A stretch of 64,000 nucleotides of DNA from Prochloron sp. SulCav_FS08_3_32_3330. GTDB lineage: Bacteria; Cyanobacteriota; Cyanobacteriia; Cyanobacteriales; DYNF01. How positions within the stretch are numbered: the first letter of the stretch is position 1; every line of letters begins with the position of its first letter. This document shows, piece after piece, positions 28,374 to 46,085 of the stretch. Under the pieces are notes generated by a model. The model made no database searches. It saw nothing but the letters and a program-made list of their open reading frames with translations, and had not been told where the DNA came from. The DNA lies in assembly GCA_020721205.1 (NCBI GenBank), contig DYNF01000001.1:1-64000 (forward strand), in the 5' to 3' direction. The position numbers and the translations under genes are program-made.

Positions 28374-29666
28374 ATGAGTCAATCCATTATTCAACTTGTT
28401 GACCAACTTCCTAGCGATAATATTACCGTTAAAGTCCTCAAAGCACTGGACTTTATCGCCCCCGGACAATGGACAAATACCGTCGGTTTTGACCAAACTA
28501 TTCGAGTAGTTACGGGAGAACATGATCCTACTAAAATTCAGCGTATTAAAGAGAAAGCTTTAGCTCTTTATGAGGATGATAAAAATGGTTATAAAAGTGC
28601 GATTTCCCTTTATCAAATAGTAGATAAAGCTGATACTGCTATGGCAACCGCCGCTTTAGCTAATAAAATAGGAGAAAAGATTGAATTTCTCTCTTTTCTG
28701 AATAAGATTACCCCGAAAGCTGATACTGCTCAAACGATTGATTTAGTCTTAAAAGTTGTTATTGAAATTATCGCTTTTTGTAAGATTAATGGAATGCCCC
28801 AACCTAATCCACAGGTATTTGTTGAGTCTTTAACTAATAATTATACCGACGCTTCTTTAATGCGTATGGGGGCATTAGTTTGTTTAGATGGACTGTTACC
28901 TTTAGTACCTGATTTCTTAAGTAAAATTCATTCAATTATTGATGGTGGCGACGATTCTTTAGTTAAAGATAACCCAATTTTTAGCTCCATTAGTAATAGT
29001 TTACCCGGAGATAATCCCACCGCAAAATTTGGTTTTATTACCCAAAGTTTTAACGCTGTTCAAGGTTGGATGAATGGTTTAATTAGTAAAACTGGAGTAA
29101 CTCCCTCTGCTATTTTTCAAAAAATTGGTAGTTTTATTCAAGTTGCTGATGATAGTTTAGATTTTGTTGCCGCTTTTATTGATCAAACTACTAACTATTA
29201 TGAGCATACAGGTATTCAAAGCGTAGCCAGAAGCCTCATTTTAAAAGCATACGAATCTGTTAAAAATGAGCTTCCGTCCACCTCTGATCTAGACTCTAAA
29301 TCCTCTGAGAAAGGTGAGTTTAAAGTGGGGCAACTGGTAGATGCCCTCAGTGAAGACTATTGGTATTCTGCTACGATTCGGGAGATTGAAGGAAAACTGT
29401 GTTTAGTACGTTATCTTTATAATAATGATCCGAGTGAAGATGAGTGGATTAAGAAAAAAAATCTTCGTCCGGCGGGAACTAAGTATAAAGTTGGGGATGA
29501 AATTGAAGTTTTATACAGCGATGGAGAATGGTATGAGGCTGAAATTCTCGAAATTGACGGTGATACTTATTTAGTAGAATATACGGATGAGGAGTTTTAT
29601 GATGAGGATGATGATGAGGGAGAAACAGAAAAAGTAGCTTGGCAACGTATTTGTTGCGAAGATTAA
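28374..29666 (+). CDS. Protein with two C-terminal agenet/Tudor-like modules
   Basis: The 430-aa product has no recognised enzymatic motif. Residues 1-315 are mainly helical and soluble, with several hydrophobic stretches but no clear membrane span or signal peptide. Residues 316-366 (FKVGQLVDALSEDYWYSATI) and 371-430 (YKVGDEIEVLYSDGEWYEAE) are two consecutive small beta-barrel repeats of the agenet/Tudor type, each with the V-G-----L-----WY-A-I pattern. An acidic stretch (FYDEDDDEGETE) lies in the second. Such modules read modified proteins in eukaryotes; in bacteria the ligand is unknown. The gene is monocistronic, with two inverted repeats in its upstream region. The agenet call is by motif; the N-terminal part is unassigned. 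Confidence 0.7.
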   Translation: MSQSIIQLVDQLPSDNITVKVLKALDFIAPGQWTNTVGFDQTIRVVTGEHDPTKIQRIKEKALALYEDDKNGYKSAISLYQIVDKADTAMATAALANKIGEKIEFLSFLNKITPKADTAQTIDLVLKVVIEIIAFCKINGMPQPNPQVFVESLTNNYTDASLMRMGALVCLDGLLPLVPDFLSKIHSIIDGGDDSLVKDNPIFSSISNSLPGDNPTAKFGFITQSFNAVQGWMNGLISKTGVTPSAIFQKIGSFIQVADDSLDFVAAFIDQTTNYYEHTGIQSVARSLILKAYESVKNELPSTSDLDSKSSEKGEFKVGQLVDALSEDYWYSATIREIEGKLCLVRYLYNNDPSEDEWIKKKNLRPAGTKYKVGDEIEVLYSDGEWYEAEILEIDGDTYLVEYTDEEFYDEDDDEGETEKVAWQRICCED

Positions 29667-30465: not shown

Positions 30466-31239
30466 ATGTCAGACAGAATTACACTACTCTCAAAAAGAGA
30501 AATTGACAAAATGCGTCAAGCTGGGCGTTTAGCTTCTCAACTCTTGGATTACCTTGCACCGATGGTAAAACCCGGAATTAGTACACAAGAATTAAACGAT
30601 GAAGCTGAAAAATGGACAAAAGCTCATAATGCAATAAGCGCACCTTTAGGTTATAAAGTAGGAAAAGTTCACTTCCCTAAATCTATTTGTACCAGTATTA
30701 ATGAGGTAATTTGTCACGGTATTCCTAGTAAAAAAGTTATTTTACAAGAGGGAGATATCATTAATATTGATGTTACTCCCATTTTAGACGGTTATCACGG
30801 TGATACTTCTCGTACTTTTTTAGTGGGAGAAGTCTCAGAAACTGCGAAAAAATTAGTCGAAGTAACAGAAGAATGCTTATATAGGGCGATTGAAGTAATT
30901 AAACCTAATGGGAGGCTTGGCGATATTGGAGCGGCGATTCAGGAACACGCAGAATCAGAGGGTTTTTCAGTGGTGCGGGACTTTGTTGGTCATGGAATTA
31001 ACAGAGTATTTCATACTGCTCCCCAAGTGCCTCATTTTGGGGAAAGGGGAACGGGGAAAAAACTCCGTCCCGGCATGGTTTTCACCATTGAACCGATGAT
31101 AAATGAGGGAACTCACGAAGCTGAACTTTTAAAGGACGGTTGGACGGCAGTAACAAAGGATCGCAAACTTTCAGCACAATTTGAGCATACCATTGCTGTA
31201 ACCCATGACGGGGTACAAATTTTAACTTTGAGTGATTAA
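30466..31239 (+). CDS. map: Methionine aminopeptidase type I
   Basis: Map removes the initiator methionine from nascent proteins. The 257-aa product has the pita-bread fold signatures: NIDVTPILDGYHGDTSRTF with two metal-binding Asp, FVGHGINRVFHTAPQVPHF with the metal-binding and catalytic His, FTIEPMI with the metal-binding Glu, and QFEHTIAVT with the final Glu. There is no N-terminal zinc-finger extension. It lies upstream of the orphan atpC, about 130 bases apart, with a hairpin between them. Cyanobacteria often carry more than one map paralogue; which one this is cannot be told here. Confidence 0.95.
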   Translation: MSDRITLLSKREIDKMRQAGRLASQLLDYLAPMVKPGISTQELNDEAEKWTKAHNAISAPLGYKVGKVHFPKSICTSINEVICHGIPSKKVILQEGDIINIDVTPILDGYHGDTSRTFLVGEVSETAKKLVEVTEECLYRAIEVIKPNGRLGDIGAAIQEHAESEGFSVVRDFVGHGINRVFHTAPQVPHFGERGTGKKLRPGMVFTIEPMINEGTHEAELLKDGWTAVTKDRKLSAQFEHTIAVTHDGVQILTLSD

Positions 31240-31261: not shown

Positions 31262-31313
31262 GGTGGGCAGATAAAAATTTTAAAAAGTCAAGATAATTTT
31301 GAGTATGCCCACC
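31262..31313. terminator. Inverted repeat after map
   Basis: GGTGGGCA (31262-31269) pairs with TGCCCACC (31306-31313) around an AT-rich loop of 36 bases. It could be a terminator or a tiny repeat element. No T-run follows directly. Confidence 0.4.
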
Positions 31314-31366
31314 GATAAATTGTGTTATTTTAGTTATTATTAATCTTTATAAATAACTAATGTAAA

Positions 31367-31750
31367 ATGAAACTAAAAATTTTATTACCAACGGAAGTTT
31401 TTTTAGAAACAGAAATTAATAAAATTACGGCAGAAGCAGAAAATGGACATTTTACTTTATTACCTCGTCATCTTGATTTTGTAACAGCATTAATCCCCGG
31501 AATTTTATTATTTCAAACGATAAATAATGAAACTCAAATTATTGCTATTGATGAAGGAATTTTAGTTAAATGTGGTCAAGAAGTTTTAGTTTCTGTGGGT
31601 AATGCGATTAAAGGAGATTCTTTAGAAACTTTACAACAAACTGTAGAAAAACAGTTTAAAATATTAGATGAACAAGATAGAAAAGCGAGGGCGGCTTCTG
31701 CTAGTTTAGAAGCCAGTTTAATCCGTCATTTTGTGGAATTTGATAAATAA
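31367..31750 (+). CDS. atpC: N-type ATPase epsilon subunit (orphan)
   Basis: The 127-aa product has the shape of the epsilon subunit of N-ATPases, the Na+-coupled F-type ATPases encoded by atpDCQRBEFAG. It starts MKLKILLPTEVFLETEINKI, contains TAEAENGHFTLLPRHLDFV and IDEGILVKCG, and ends with the helical hairpin EKQFKILDEQDRKARAASAS. These differ from the housekeeping epsilon subunit. The beta subunit gene (atpD), expected immediately upstream, is absent; map is there instead. The atpQ-like gene follows after a mobile repeat. Both genes are intact, so this is either a relic or a pair that acquired another partner. The function cannot be energy coupling on its own. Confidence 0.82.
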   Translation: MKLKILLPTEVFLETEINKITAEAENGHFTLLPRHLDFVTALIPGILLFQTINNETQIIAIDEGILVKCGQEVLVSVGNAIKGDSLETLQQTVEKQFKILDEQDRKARAASASLEASLIRHFVEFDK

Positions 31751-31785
31751 GTTATTAATTATTAATTATTATTAGTTATAGTTAT

Positions 31786-31917
31786 TAAGTAAGTGGTCAT
31801 AAATATTATCATATATCTAAAAGTTCGTAGTTGGGCTTCAGTTTCCCTATAGGGGAGGGCTGAAGCCCAACTACAAACAATCTTCTTTTTGTTACTTTAT
31901 TTATGACCATTTACTTA
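31786..31917. mobile_element. MITE family 2 with TAAGTA ends and internal GCT(G/A)AAGC palindrome
   Basis: Ends TAAGTAAGTGGTCATAAAT and ATTTATGACCATTTACTTA are inverted. The core carries GTAGTTGGGCTTCAG and CTGAAGCCCAACTAC. The element is flanked on both sides by a nearly identical 23-bp AT-rich direct repeat (31766-31788 and 31919-31941). It separates atpC from atpQ. A second copy is at 45952-46085. Confidence 0.75.
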
Positions 31918-31949
31918 GTTATTATTAGTTATAGTTATTAATAATTAAT

Positions 31950-31968
31950 CACAGGCATCTTGCCTGTG
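31950..31968. repeat. CACAGGCATCTTGCCTGTG palindrome
   Basis: A short palindrome (CACAGGCA/TGCCTGTG) precedes atpQ. The same motif is found at 37302-37323 after the GST gene. It may act as a transcript end or structured 5' leader. Confidence 0.6.
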
Positions 31969-32019
31969 CCACGAGGGGATATTTTTTATGATAAATTATC
32001 TTTATATTTAAGGAAAATT

Positions 32020-32319
32020 ATGACAGAAAAAAATCAAAATAATCCTGACAATTTCTCTCAAGATATAGGCAAAAAAGCCGAAAGAAAAATCAAAGCTCAA
32101 AAAGAGAAAAATAAAGCTATTTGGTACGGTTTAGGAATGTCCGGTCTAGTAGGTTGGTCGGTCATGTTACCTACTATGTTAGGTTTAAGTTTAGGTATTT
32201 GGATTGATCAAAGATTTCCTAGTGCTTATTCATGGACATTAATGGGTTTATTTATTGGCATTTTTTTAGGTTGTTTAAATGCTTGGTATTGGATCGAAAA
32301 AGAACAGAATAGACGTTAA
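32020..32319 (+). CDS. atpQ: AtpQ-like membrane subunit of N-type ATPase (AtpZ/AtpI family, orphan)
   Basis: The 99-aa protein has a charged N-terminus and two membrane spans (about residues 44-62 and 70-88), with LPTMLGLSLGIWIDQRF and GCLNAWYWIEKE, as in AtpQ/AtpZ proteins that assist assembly of N-ATPase. I chose ATG 32020, preceded by AAGGAAAATT; the frame is open upstream but includes a repeat palindrome. In complete operons atpQ follows atpC directly and is followed by atpR and atpB. Here xisI follows, so the operon is reduced to two genes. The 270-base gap to atpC holds a mobile element. Confidence 0.75.
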   Translation: MTEKNQNNPDNFSQDIGKKAERKIKAQKEKNKAIWYGLGMSGLVGWSVMLPTMLGLSLGIWIDQRFPSAYSWTLMGLFIGIFLGCLNAWYWIEKEQNRR

Positions 32320-32413: not shown

Positions 32414-32746
32414 ATGGATAAATTAACAAAATATCGTCAATATATTCAAGAATTTTTAACAGAACAATGTCAAGGAAAATCTATTGGAGGAGATATTGAT
32501 TCAGAAACGGTTTTTGATTTGAATCAAGATCGTTATTTATTAATTGATTTAGGCTGGAATAAACATCGTCGTATTTATAATTGTATCATTCATTTAGAAA
32601 TTAAAAAAGGTAAAATTTTAATTCAAAGAAATCAAACTGATATATTAATTACTGATGAATTGATCAATAAAGGGGTGAATAAAAATGATATTATTGTTGG
32701 TACACAACCTCCTTATCTGAGAGAATATCTTGAGATGAGTAAGTAA
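32414..32746 (+). CDS. xisI: XisI-like protein (fdxN element excision controlling factor family)
   Basis: The 110-aa product matches the XisI family: YRQYIQEFLTEQ at the start, FDLNQDRYLLIDLGWNKHRR, HLEIKKGKILIQRNQTD and GVNKNDIIVGTQPPYLREY. In Anabaena, XisH and XisI control excision of the fdxN element, but most family members in other cyanobacteria have no known role. XisH usually lies directly upstream; it is missing here and the upstream neighbour is atpQ. The gene is intact. No nitrogen-fixation genes are in the window, so a role in nif rearrangement is unlikely. Confidence 0.85.
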   Translation: MDKLTKYRQYIQEFLTEQCQGKSIGGDIDSETVFDLNQDRYLLIDLGWNKHRRIYNCIIHLEIKKGKILIQRNQTDILITDELINKGVNKNDIIVGTQPPYLREYLEMSK

Positions 32747-32818: not shown

Positions 32819-33949
32819 TTGACACAAATAGAAGGACAAGTTAAATTTATAGTTGATAACGCTTTTTATCGTCCTCAATCAAAAATTGTGCGAGATTTAG
32901 GCATATTAGCAGGGGCAGTTTATCAACAAGAAAAACATCAGTTAAAAGTCTTAGATGTGATGAGTGGCTGTGGAGTCAGAAGTTTACGTTATGTAGTAGA
33001 AAGTGGCGCAAATTTTGTTCATTCTAATGAAGGCAATCCTGATATATTATCTATTTTAAAAAGCAATTTAGAAGCAAATCTTAAGCCTGAATTTTATCAA
33101 ATTACAAGCTTAAATGCTAATCAAATATTTTTTAAATGTTCTAATGATAAAAACTATTATGATTTAGTTGATGTGGACTGTTTCGGTAGTGCTAATCCTT
33201 ATTTAACTAATATGATTTATGGGACTAAGTTAGGCGGATTAATGTATATTACAAGCACCGACGGACGCAGTATGACAGGTATTTTACCCGAAAATAGTTT
33301 AAGAAATTACGGTTCTTATTTGCGTCATTTACCAATTAAACATGAACAAGGTTTAAGATTATTAATCGGTAAAATTCAACAATCTGCGGCGGAAAATGGG
33401 TTAGGAATTGAACCAATTTTTGCTTATTTTACTGGACAAAATTATCGAGTTATGGTAAGATTAATTAAGAAAGTAATGTTAACAGAAAATAATTATAGTT
33501 TTTTAGGTTACTGTTATCAATGTGGGGAATATCAAAAAGTACCTTGGCGTAATTTAGGAAAAGTAACTTGTGATTGTAAAATAGAGAGAAAAGAGAATAA
33601 TAATTATTATTCATCTGTTGTTTTAAGTGGGGCAATGTGGTTAGAAAATTTACATAATATAAATTATTTACAAAAAATGAAAGAAATTGCTGTTAAATGG
33701 AATTGGCAAAAGGTGATAAAATTATTAAATATTATGGAAAATGAAGCAAGTTTACCACCTTATTTTTACCCTTTACAAGAAATAGGCTCAAGAGGTAAAT
33801 TAGATTTACCAAAAAGAGATATTTTAATTAAAGAATTACAAAATCAGGGTTATGAAAGTGCGATTTCTCATGTTAATATTCAGGCAATAAAAACTACTGC
33901 TTCTTTTAAAAAAACGGTAGAAATTGCTAAAAAAATTTCATCTCAGTAA
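32819..33949 (+). CDS. trm1: Trm1-family tRNA (guanine-N2) methyltransferase
   Basis: Trm1 methylates N2 of G26 (and G27 in Aquifex) in tRNA. The 376-aa product has SAM motif I LDVMSGCGVRSLRYV, the acidic motif DLVDVDCFGSANPYL, the TSTDGRSMTG loop and a zinc-binding region YCYQCG/TCDCK. The family is mostly archaeal and eukaryotic, with a few bacteria including cyanobacteria, so this suggests old lateral transfer. Translation probably starts at TTG 32819: AAAGGAG lies nine bases upstream, and the next residues TQIEGQVKFIVDNAFY match the family start. A palindrome array follows the stop codon directly. Confidence 0.85.
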   Translation: MTQIEGQVKFIVDNAFYRPQSKIVRDLGILAGAVYQQEKHQLKVLDVMSGCGVRSLRYVVESGANFVHSNEGNPDILSILKSNLEANLKPEFYQITSLNANQIFFKCSNDKNYYDLVDVDCFGSANPYLTNMIYGTKLGGLMYITSTDGRSMTGILPENSLRNYGSYLRHLPIKHEQGLRLLIGKIQQSAAENGLGIEPIFAYFTGQNYRVMVRLIKKVMLTENNYSFLGYCYQCGEYQKVPWRNLGKVTCDCKIERKENNNYYSSVVLSGAMWLENLHNINYLQKMKEIAVKWNWQKVIKLLNIMENEASLPPYFYPLQEIGSRGKLDLPKRDILIKELQNQGYESAISHVNIQAIKTTASFKKTVEIAKKISSQ

Positions 33950-33960
33950 ACTTTTTTTTA

Positions 33961-34180
33961 GTGCTAAAGCACAACAACAAACTTTTATTTTTTAGTGCTA
34001 AAGCACAACAACAAACTTATTTTTTAGTGCTAAAGCACAACAACAAACTTTTATTTTTTAGTGCTAAAGCACAACAACAAACTTATTTTTTAGTGCTAAA
34101 GCACAACAACAAACTTTTATTTTTTAGTGCTAAAGCACAACAACAAACTTTTATTTTTTAGCGCTAAAGCGCAACAACAA
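33961..34180. repeat. Seven-unit tandem array of the GTGCTAAAGCAC palindrome
   Basis: GTGCTAAAGCACAACAACAA plus AC-TT spacer repeats start at 33961, 33995, 34027, 34061, 34093, 34127 and 34161, with spacing alternating between 34 and 32 (the last 34). Each unit can form a GTGC-TAAA-GCAC hairpin. The last unit reads GCGCTAAAGCGC: both arms changed together, so pairing is kept. The array ends five bases before the M28 peptidase start and follows the trm1 stop directly. The open frame through it is only a product of the repeat. Confidence 0.9.
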
Positions 34181-34184
34181 ACTT

Positions 34185-42150: not shown

Positions 42151-42245
42151 CCTTAGAAATGTTAGGATTAGAACCAGACTGCAAAAATTAAAGTTTAAAA
42201 GTATTACCCACAGAATCAGTTGACACTTATCTCACAATTTTATAA
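42151..42245 (+). pseudogene. Truncated upstream copy of the tandem protease gene
   Basis: LEMLGLEPD, CKN, a stop, then SLKVLPTESVDTYLTIL and stop correspond to the last 30 or so codons of the downstream protease genes. Compared with them a CAA codon has become TAA and a few bases differ. It shows the array once extended further, or that the first copy was damaged by rearrangement with the Uma2 relic. Confidence 0.85.
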
Positions 42246-42264
42246 TAATAACAGGGAAATTATT

Positions 42265-42717
42265 ATGACTTCAATACTTAATTTATCTCAAAAAGTTATG
42301 GGCAAAGTACACACAAAATTAACAATTATTAATCGTGGTGATCAAATTCGTGCTAAAGATGGCACAATTACTGAAGACAAAATTAGATCTGTCACTTTAG
42401 ATAGAGTTTTAGTAGATACAGGGGCGACTACTCTTTGTTTACCTCCTGAAATTATCGCTAAATTAGGACTAGAATTACTCAAAGAAGTAGATGTCGCCAC
42501 TGCTATGGGTATTGGGAAAGCCCGTATTTTCAGAGATGCTACTATTTCTCTTTACGGTAGAGAAGGCACTTTTGAATGTTTAGAGTTACCCGGAGGAAGG
42601 GATCCCCTATTAGGTGTAATTCCTTTAGAAATGTTAGGATTAGAACCAGATTTAAAAAATCAAAGTTTAAAAGTGTTACCCACAGAATCAGTTGACACTT
42701 ATCTCACAATTTTATAA
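42265..42717 (+). CDS. Retropepsin-like aspartic protease, tandem copy 1
   Basis: The 150-aa protein is a single-domain clan AA aspartic protease. The catalytic motif is VLVDTGATTLCLP (Asp-Thr-Gly) near residue 50, followed by the flap-like RDATISLYGREGTFECL and the second hydrophobic motif LLGVIPLEMLGLEP. Such one-lobe enzymes work as dimers. I chose ATG 42265, which follows AGGGAAATT; an upstream in-frame ATG would overlap the previous copy. There is no signal peptide. It is identical in protein sequence to copies 2 and 3. Substrate is unknown, and its placement inside an export operon is unexplained. Confidence 0.85.
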   Translation: MTSILNLSQKVMGKVHTKLTIINRGDQIRAKDGTITEDKIRSVTLDRVLVDTGATTLCLPPEIIAKLGLELLKEVDVATAMGIGKARIFRDATISLYGREGTFECLELPGGRDPLLGVIPLEMLGLEPDLKNQSLKVLPTESVDTYLTIL

Positions 42718-42736
42718 TAATAACAGGGAAATTATT

Positions 42737-43189
42737 ATGACTTCAATACTTAATTTATCTCAAAAAGTTATGGGCAAAGTACACACAAAATTAACAATTA
42801 TTAATCGTGGTGATCAAATTCGTGCTAAAGATGGCACAATTACTGAAGACAAAATTAGATCTGTCACTTTAGATAGAGTTTTAGTAGATACAGGGGCGAC
42901 TACTCTTTGTTTACCTCCTGAAATTATCGCTAAATTAGGACTAGAATTACTCAAAGAAGTAGATGTCGCCACTGCTATGGGTATTGGGAAAGCCCGTATT
43001 TTCAGAGATGCTACTATTTCTCTTTACGGTAGAGAAGGCACTTTTGAATGTTTAGAGTTACCCGGAGGAAGGGATCCCCTATTAGGTGTAATTCCTTTAG
43101 AAATGTTAGGATTAGAACCAGATTTAAAAAATCAAAGTTTAAAAGTGTTACCCACAGAATCAGTTGACACTTATCTCACAATTTTATAA
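42737..43189 (+). CDS. Retropepsin-like aspartic protease, tandem copy 2
   Basis: This 150-aa product has the same amino-acid sequence as copy 1, including the DTGATTLCLP active site. It starts 19 bases after the copy 1 stop codon, with the same AGGGAAATT leader, so the copies are probably translated from one polycistronic message. The nucleotide sequence also looks identical to copies 1 and 3, which implies recent amplification or gene conversion. Confidence 0.85.
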   Translation: MTSILNLSQKVMGKVHTKLTIINRGDQIRAKDGTITEDKIRSVTLDRVLVDTGATTLCLPPEIIAKLGLELLKEVDVATAMGIGKARIFRDATISLYGREGTFECLELPGGRDPLLGVIPLEMLGLEPDLKNQSLKVLPTESVDTYLTIL

Positions 43190-43208
43190 TAATAACAGGG
43201 AAATTATT

Positions 43209-43661
43209 ATGACTTCAATACTTAATTTATCTCAAAAAGTTATGGGCAAAGTACACACAAAATTAACAATTATTAATCGTGGTGATCAAATTCGTGCTAA
43301 AGATGGCACAATTACTGAAGACAAAATTAGATCTGTCACTTTAGATAGAGTTTTAGTAGATACAGGGGCGACTACTCTTTGTTTACCTCCTGAAATTATC
43401 GCTAAATTAGGACTAGAATTACTCAAAGAAGTAGATGTCGCCACTGCTATGGGTATTGGGAAAGCCCGTATTTTCAGAGATGCTACTATTTCTCTTTACG
43501 GTAGAGAAGGCACTTTTGAATGTTTAGAGTTACCCGGAGGAAGGGATCCCCTATTAGGTGTAATTCCTTTAGAAATGTTAGGATTAGAACCAGATTTAAA
43601 AAATCAAAGTTTAAAAGTGTTACCCACAGAATCAGTTGACACTTATCTCACAATTTTATAA
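43209..43661 (+). CDS. Retropepsin-like aspartic protease, tandem copy 3
   Basis: The third 150-aa copy is identical in protein sequence to copies 1 and 2. The spacer and ribosome-binding sequence are preserved. All catalytic residues remain, so there is no sign of decay despite redundancy. A dosage effect or very recent expansion would both fit. Confidence 0.85.
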   Translation: MTSILNLSQKVMGKVHTKLTIINRGDQIRAKDGTITEDKIRSVTLDRVLVDTGATTLCLPPEIIAKLGLELLKEVDVATAMGIGKARIFRDATISLYGREGTFECLELPGGRDPLLGVIPLEMLGLEPDLKNQSLKVLPTESVDTYLTIL

Positions 43662-43680
43662 TAATAACAGGGAAATTATT

Positions 43681-44133
43681 ATGACTTCAATACTTAATTT
43701 ATCTCAAAAAGTTATGGGCAAAGTACACACAAAATTAACAATTATTAATCGTGGTGATCAAATTCGTGCTAAAGATGGCACAATTACTGAAGACAAAATT
43801 AGATCTGTCACTTTAGATAGAGTTTTAGTAGATACAGGGGCGACTACTCTTTGTTTACCTCCTGAAATTATCGCTAAATTAGGACTAGAATTACTCAAAG
43901 AAGTAGATGTCGCCACTGCTATGGGTATTGGGAAAGCCCGTATTTTCAGAGATGCTACTATTTCTCTTTACGGTAGAGAAGGCACTTTTGAATGTTTAGA
44001 GTTACCCGGAGGAAGGGATCCCCTATTAGGTGTAATTCCCTTAGAAATGTTAGGATTAGAACCAGATTTAAAAAATCAAAGCTTAAAAGTGTTACCATCG
44101 GAATCAGTTGACACTTATCTCACCATCTTATAA
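43681..44133 (+). CDS. Retropepsin-like aspartic protease, tandem copy 4
   Basis: The last copy differs from the others by one residue (PTESVD becomes PSESVD) and several silent changes, all in the final 100 bases. This unique 3' end probably represents the original gene end before duplication. The active site DTGATTLCLP is intact. It lies 68 bases before the exporter ATPase gene, on the same strand. Confidence 0.85.
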   Translation: MTSILNLSQKVMGKVHTKLTIINRGDQIRAKDGTITEDKIRSVTLDRVLVDTGATTLCLPPEIIAKLGLELLKEVDVATAMGIGKARIFRDATISLYGREGTFECLELPGGRDPLLGVIPLEMLGLEPDLKNQSLKVLPSESVDTYLTIL

Positions 44134-45951: not shown

Positions 45952-46085
45952 TAAGTAGATGGTCATAAATAAAGTAACAAAAAAAAGATAGTTCGTAGTT
46001 GGGCTTTAGCCCTATCGCTATAGGGCTAAAGCCCAACTACAAACTTTTTTATATAGGACAATAAATAATTATGACCACCTACTTA
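45952..46085. mobile_element. MITE family 2, second copy
   Basis: Inverted ends TAAGTAGATGGTCATAAATA and ATTATGACCACCTACTTA enclose GTAGTTGGGCTTTAGCCC and GGGCTAAAGCCCAACTAC. It shares its left arm (TCATAAATAAAGTAACAAAA) with the right arm of the copy at 31786-31917. It ends two bases before the fcl stop codon, so it could influence transcript ends there. Confidence 0.8.

What the first reader, a model, noticed from the sequence alone, without database searches (positions are those of the whole stretch)
31367..32319. Orphan atpC-atpQ pair, a two-gene relic of an N-type ATPase operon
N-ATPase operons are normally atpDCQRBEFAG. Here only the epsilon subunit and the AtpQ-like membrane protein remain, both intact, with map upstream in place of atpD and xisI downstream in place of atpR. 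Intact reading frames after loss of the catalytic and rotor genes suggest either very recent deletion or a new function.
Basis: partly seen in the sequence, partly recalled or inferred. Interest (0 to 1): 0.55.

Follow-up and report, generated by a model that had tools for sequence, protein, structure and literature searches.

The report
Scattered N-ATPase operon, epsilon-AtpQ piece
These two genes are not leftovers of a lost ion pump but one piece of a second, N-type rotary ATPase whose usually unbroken gene cluster has been scattered over at least five places in this cyanobacterium, with only the beta-subunit gene not found in the assembly.

Summary
Intact N-type atpC (31367-31750) and atpQ (32020-32319) sit between map and xisI, and both score above N-ATPase family cut-offs. 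The "two-gene relic" reading fails. The same genome carries intact N-type atpR+atpB (contig C91), atpE+atpF (C6), atpA (C62) and atpG (C107), each among unrelated genes. The window holds the only N-type atpC and the only atpQ. Eight of nine subunit genes are therefore intact but dispersed over five loci, each piece keeping its ancestral order (D|CQ|RB|EF|A|G). Only N-type atpD was not found: an assembly gap (favoured) or a real loss. All eight subunits group with the same relatives (G006 and/or one copy in G170), so one ancestral set was broken up by rearrangement. A survey of 391 genomes of the order shows this is recurrent: in 10 of 49 genomes with both genes, atpD and atpC are demonstrably apart, and in two closed or near-closed assemblies atpA lies 72 kb and 1.04 Mb from atpC. 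True relics exist elsewhere (truncated or frameshifted lone atpC) and look different. Published catalogues identify N-ATPases as single clusters, so dispersed ones may be under-recorded. Likely function: a Na+-pumping N-ATPase made from separately transcribed genes; function was not tested.

The parts
31367..31750 (+). atpC, N-type epsilon subunit, 127 aa, intact; only N-type copy in the genome
32020..32319 (+). atpQ, N-ATPase-specific small membrane protein, 99 aa from ATG 32020; only copy in the genome
31786..31925 (.). MITE-like palindromic repeat between atpC and atpQ (terminal inverted repeat around AAGTAAGTGGTCATAAATA / TATTTATGACCATTTACTT); second copy at 45952-46085 on the other strand, 83% over 137 nt
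   Evidence: folding z = -11.4
31762..31941 (.). 27-nt direct repeats (31762-31788 and 31915-31941, 96%) bracketing the palindromic element; may be a target duplication or an older local repeat
31262..31315 (.). Small palindrome GGTGGGCA...TGCCCACC between map and atpC, where atpD would stand in an intact operon; no atpD remnant
   Evidence: tblastn of 40 AtpD sequences: nothing significant in the window
30466..31239 (+). map, methionine aminopeptidase I: unrelated upstream neighbour (context only)
32414..32746 (+). xisI-like gene: unrelated downstream neighbour (context only)

Best explanation
The pair is one of at least five fragments of a dispersed N-ATPase gene set in a cyanobacterium. The ancestral operon atpDCQRBEFAG was broken by genome rearrangement into D | CQ | RB | EF | A | G, and each fragment now stands alone among unrelated genes. 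SHOWN: eight of nine subunit genes are present, full-length, above N-type cut-offs where such models exist, and co-inherited. INFERRED: they are still expressed separately and assemble into one N-type rotary ATPase, working mainly as an ATP-driven Na+ (possibly H+) export pump beside the complete housekeeping ATP synthase; AtpC is its epsilon subunit and AtpQ, with AtpR, a membrane accessory protein. INFERRED and least certain: the missing atpD is a further solitary gene lost to a gap in the 209-contig assembly.
For: Own genome: atpR, atpC only copy, atpQ only copy, atpA 818 bits vs cut-off 750.5, atpG 338 vs 282, atpF 231 vs 225, atpE 142 vs 131, atpB TIGR03306 317 vs 302. No internal stops in any of the eight. 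Differences to relatives are fewest at codon position 2 and mostly highest at position 3, e.g. atpC vs G170b 0.32/0.20/0.63 and atpQ 0.31/0.20/0.54. Each locus has unrelated neighbours on its contig: map/xisI; housekeeping atp operon; HinT and phycobilisome genes; hypB/DedA; ndhB (1, 11, 17, 24, 25). In trees of all eight subunits the window genome groups with G006 and/or the G170b copy, and in a 1683-column joint tree that trio is supported at 99 and the pair with G006 at 97. Branches are similar in length to those of its two sisters. The same kind of fragmentation recurs in relatives. AtpE keeps the two-carboxylate and VESTGIY motif expected of Na+-binding rings (72; inference, background in PMC5706428 and PMC5376962).
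Against: N-type atpD, the catalytic subunit, is not in the assembly although it is rated 99.4% complete. No shared upstream motif was found that would tie the pieces into one regulon. No expression or protein data. No close relative exists to measure dN/dS properly.
Confidence: 0.77

Rival explanations
1. The N-ATPase has lost atpD and is at an early stage of decay: eight intact genes remain but make no working enzyme, so the pair is a relic after all, though of a nine-gene set with eight survivors.
For: No N-type atpD in the assembly. Real relics occur in the order: lone truncated atpC in G121, frameshifted lone atpC in G254, lone atpD in closed genome G305.
Against: All eight other genes, about 1730 codons at five unlinked places, are free of stops and evolve no faster than in sisters. 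The relics found are single, damaged or isolated genes, quite unlike this set.
Confidence: 0.14
2. Hybrid enzyme: N-type alpha, gamma, epsilon and Fo subunits work with the housekeeping beta subunit (contig C207), the only beta gene found.
For: Only one beta gene in the genome; eight intact N-type genes imply use. G149, rated 99% complete, also has the other eight but no N-type atpD in its assembly.
Against: N-type and housekeeping beta are only about 50-55% identical. In G149 atpC lies about 1.1 kb from a contig end on the atpD side, so a gap explains it. No precedent known to me.
Confidence: 0.06
3. AtpC and AtpQ were recruited to a new function unrelated to an N-ATPase.
For: Located away from other atp genes.
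Against: The partners of both proteins are encoded in the same genome and share one phylogenetic history; conserved positions of AtpC and AtpQ are kept.
Confidence: 0.02
4. Assembly or binning artefact: an intact operon cut up by contig breaks, or contigs from another organism.
For: 209 contigs; atpB lies 242 bp from a contig end.
Against: Every other piece is continuous with unrelated cyanobacterial genes on the sides where operon neighbours should be; contamination is rated 0.71%. Large-scale separation is also seen in closed or long contigs of relatives.
Confidence: 0.01

Closest known systems
N-ATPase (N-type rotary ATPase; Dibrova et al. 2010; Aphanothece halophytica, Burkholderia pseudomallei, Synechococcus 7002)
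   Same: Family-level matches for epsilon, AtpQ, AtpR, a, c, long b, alpha and gamma; present beside a complete housekeeping ATP synthase; Na+-type motif in c.
   Different: Genes at five or more unlinked places instead of one operon; N-type beta not found.
Housekeeping cyanobacterial F-ATP synthase, split in two operons (a-c-b'-b-delta-alpha-gamma and beta-epsilon)
   Same: A rotary ATPase whose genes are not all in one operon; present complete in this genome on C91 and C207.
   Different: Different subfamily; only two conserved pieces, whereas the N-ATPase here is in at least five.
Aquificae and Beggiatoa F-ATP synthase loci with several splits (PMC4154653)
   Same: Scattered F-ATPase genes that still supply an enzyme.
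   Different: Housekeeping F-type, not N-type; that study describes N-ATPase genes as a locus.

Membership tests
N-ATPase | Subunits match N-type ('alternate F1F0') models over cut-off | tested here: met
   epsilon, a, c, b, alpha, gamma over cut-off
N-ATPase | N-type beta subunit (atpD) | tested here: inconclusive
   No match over cut-off in the assembly; the single beta gene is the housekeeping one, 599.8 vs 752 bits. An assembly gap is not excluded, so completeness of the enzyme is open
N-ATPase | Presence of AtpQ and AtpR | tested here: met
   AtpQ TIGR02230 129.8 bits; AtpR PF12966 78.6 bits
N-ATPase | Single operon in the order D-C-Q-R-B-E-F-A-G (usual organisation) | tested here: not met
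   Five separate loci. Pieces keep local order CQ, RB, EF. Also broken in many relatives whose subunits are N-type, so this is a usual rather than a necessary feature
N-ATPase | No separate delta; long b subunit | tested here: met
   AtpF 251 aa covers 245 of 246 positions of TIGR03321; the only delta gene seen is in the housekeeping operon; no genome-wide delta search made
N-ATPase | Found in addition to a main ATP synthase | tested here: met
   Complete housekeeping set on C91 and C207
N-ATPase | Na+-binding residues in c subunit | tested here: met
   GEG carboxylate and VESTGIY in AtpE; motif only, ion not measured
N-ATPase | ATP-driven ion pumping | not testable with these tools
   Needs biochemistry
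Relic (decaying) gene pair | Other subunits absent and reading frames relaxed or broken | tested here: not met
   Six further subunit genes present; no stops; codon-position pattern of constrained genes

The most novel reading that the evidence does not exclude
The organism runs a chimeric rotary ATPase: N-type alpha, gamma, epsilon and Fo with the housekeeping beta subunit, so one beta gene serves two rotary enzymes, the fully dispersed N-ATPase having lost its own beta.
Probability: 0.06. Interest if true: 0.8.

Novelty: new variant of a known kind. Interest (0 to 1): 0.45.

Why it matters
[quoted passage not shown] Here a nine-gene rotary ATPase appears to persist with its genes spread over five or more loci, and breakage recurs in several lineages of the order. 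This gives a natural series (compact, loosened, split, scattered, relic) for testing whether operon linkage is needed for a multi-subunit machine, and warns that cluster-based annotation will misread such pieces as orphans, as happened here.

Tried and rejected
Shared upstream motif among the five leading genes: best k-mer shared by 3 of 5, same as shuffled sequences. atpD remnant between map and atpC or elsewhere in the held contigs: none; the only good beta hit is the housekeeping gene, and weak window hits at 42448-43941 are chance matches to a tandem repeat. atpQ and atpG of G006 within the stretches of its 102-kb contig that were read, and atpF of G119 between its atpE and atpA: not found. 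dN/dS: not estimable, the nearest relatives are at 55-66% amino-acid identity for these proteins; codon-position differences used instead. Role of the palindromic repeats in the breakage: similar repeats also sit near atpA and atpG but are common in the sequence held of this genome, so no causal claim. Literature: no description of scattered N-ATPase genes in the open papers searched; Dibrova 2010 itself was not held.

Full report
OBSERVATION. The window holds two intact genes at the stated place: atpC 31367-31750 and atpQ, whose best start is ATG 32020, ending 32319. AtpC scores 136.7 bits on the N-type epsilon model (cut-off 100.1) and 50.9 on the ordinary epsilon model (cut-off 67.25); AtpQ scores 129.8 bits (cut-off 46.7). 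Neighbours are map and an xisI-like gene. So the observation and the family assignment are right.

REST OF THE N-ATPASE. Searches of the window's own genome (4.73 Mb, 209 contigs, rated 99.4% complete) found the other subunits at four more places: atpR+atpB on C91, head to head with the housekeeping atp operon; atpE+atpF on C6 beside HinT and phycobilisome genes; atpA on C62 between hypB and a DedA gene; atpG on C107 next to ndhB. atpC and atpQ have no second N-type copy. Each protein is full length; those with an N-type NCBIfam model pass its cut-off, and AtpR passes its Pfam cut-off. N-type atpD was not found; the sole beta gene, on C207, is the housekeeping one (599.8 vs cut-off 752).

IS THE DISPERSAL REAL? 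The pieces are not contig-edge artefacts. atpC-atpQ lie 31 kb from the start of an 89-kb contig; atpQ is followed by unrelated genes; atpE is preceded by HinT and not atpB; atpA and atpG have other genes on both sides. atpB alone ends 242 bp from a contig end, but the gene that should follow it (atpE) has a different upstream neighbour on C6.

ONE ANCESTRAL SET. Trees of the eight subunits place the window genome with the same relatives each time, G006 and/or copy b of G170 (support for these groupings 81-98 in single-gene trees, the short ones being weak). In a joint tree of 1683 columns the trio has 99 and the pair with G006 97 (SH-aLRT). This supports one inherited operon broken up afterwards over separate acquisitions. 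End branches of the window genome are similar to those of its two sisters, so no burst of change followed loss of linkage.

RECURRENT BREAKAGE. Of 391 genomes of the order, 53 have N-type atpC over the cut-off, 53 have N-type atpD and 51 have N-type atpA. Of 49 genomes with both C and D, 36 have them on one contig within 2.1 kb and 13 on different contigs. In ten of these 13 (G023, G227, G233, G258, G269, G273, G277, G317, G326, G358) at least 5 kb of unrelated sequence lies where the partner should be. In closed or near-closed assemblies atpA lies 72 kb (G119) and 1.04 Mb (G170 copy b) from atpC. Break points fall between the same blocks as in the window genome: CQ alone in G227 and G269, A alone in G187, D alone in several. 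Some operons are only loosened by inserted sequence, e.g. Hyella and Xenococcus PCC 7305. The window genome, with five loci, is the most dispersed of those examined, but the remaining subunits were not searched genome-wide in the relatives.

TRUE RELICS AS CONTROLS. G121 keeps only an atpC truncated at 113 aa, G254 a frameshifted atpC, and closed genome G305 a lone atpD. The window pair differs: intact, with partners elsewhere, and with the codon-position pattern of constrained genes.

THE MISSING atpD. Gap or loss? For a gap: all other eight genes are intact, which is hard to reconcile with an old loss; D is often solitary in relatives and would then be a 1.4-kb gene easily lost between repeats. 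For loss: completeness is rated high. G149 also has eight of nine with D missing, but there atpC lies about 1.1 kb from a contig end on the D side. I favour a gap, at roughly three to one; this is a judgement, not a computed figure.

MECHANISM. By family knowledge AtpA/AtpD form the ATP-hydrolysing head, AtpG and AtpC the rotor stalk, AtpE the ring, AtpB the ion channel, and the long AtpF the peripheral stalk; AtpQ and AtpR are small membrane proteins of uncertain, probably assembly- or ion-related role. AtpE carries the GEG carboxylate and VESTGIY, so Na+ is the likely ion, as reported for Aphanothece halophytica (cited in PMC5706428), though the related Burkholderia ring was found to be H+-specific (PMC5376962). 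What is shown here is gene presence, integrity and history; expression, assembly and pumping are inferred.

INTERGENIC ELEMENT. The 269 bp between atpC and atpQ hold a 140-nt palindromic element (31786-31925; z -11.4) with an 83% copy at 45952-46085 and 27-nt direct repeats around it. It shows how repeats can loosen the remaining pairs; whether such elements caused the larger breaks is not shown.

NOVELTY. The enzyme is known; its dispersed gene organisation appears undescribed in the open literature searched, where N-ATPases are treated as single clusters (PMC11738941, PMC5709465). I call it a new variant of a known kind.

Noticed in passing
42153-44133: Four tandem copies (472-bp unit, 99% identical) of a 165-aa aspartyl-protease-like gene, between two ABC-transporter genes; either recent amplification or an assembly feature.
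   Followed up: partly
32819-33949: Trm1-type tRNA dimethylguanosine methyltransferase (PF02005, 224 bits; below the NCBIfam TRM1 cut-off), a family mostly known from archaea and eukaryotes, with a TTG start.
   Followed up: no
28374-29666: 430-aa protein with C-terminal Agenet/Tudor-like domains (PF05641), better known from plant chromatin proteins.
   Followed up: no
33948-34184: Array of 34-nt palindromic repeats (AGTGCTAAAGCACAACAACAAAC); a similar array lies directly upstream of the solitary atpA on C62 (L012 8219-8512).
   Followed up: partly
L002 8531-8833: N-type atpR-atpB stand head to head with the housekeeping atp operon, sharing a 303-bp intergenic region; possible shared regulation of both rotary ATPases.
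   Followed up: no
L077, L078 and L079 (G170): A closed genome of the order with two different N-ATPases: one compact, one with atpA-atpG 1.04 Mb from atpD-C-Q-R-B-E-F.
   Followed up: partly
L116 7406-8773 (G305): Lone, open-frame N-type atpD in a closed genome without N-type atpC or atpA over threshold.
   Followed up: partly
32414-32746: xisI-like gene with no xisH-like gene adjacent.
   Followed up: no
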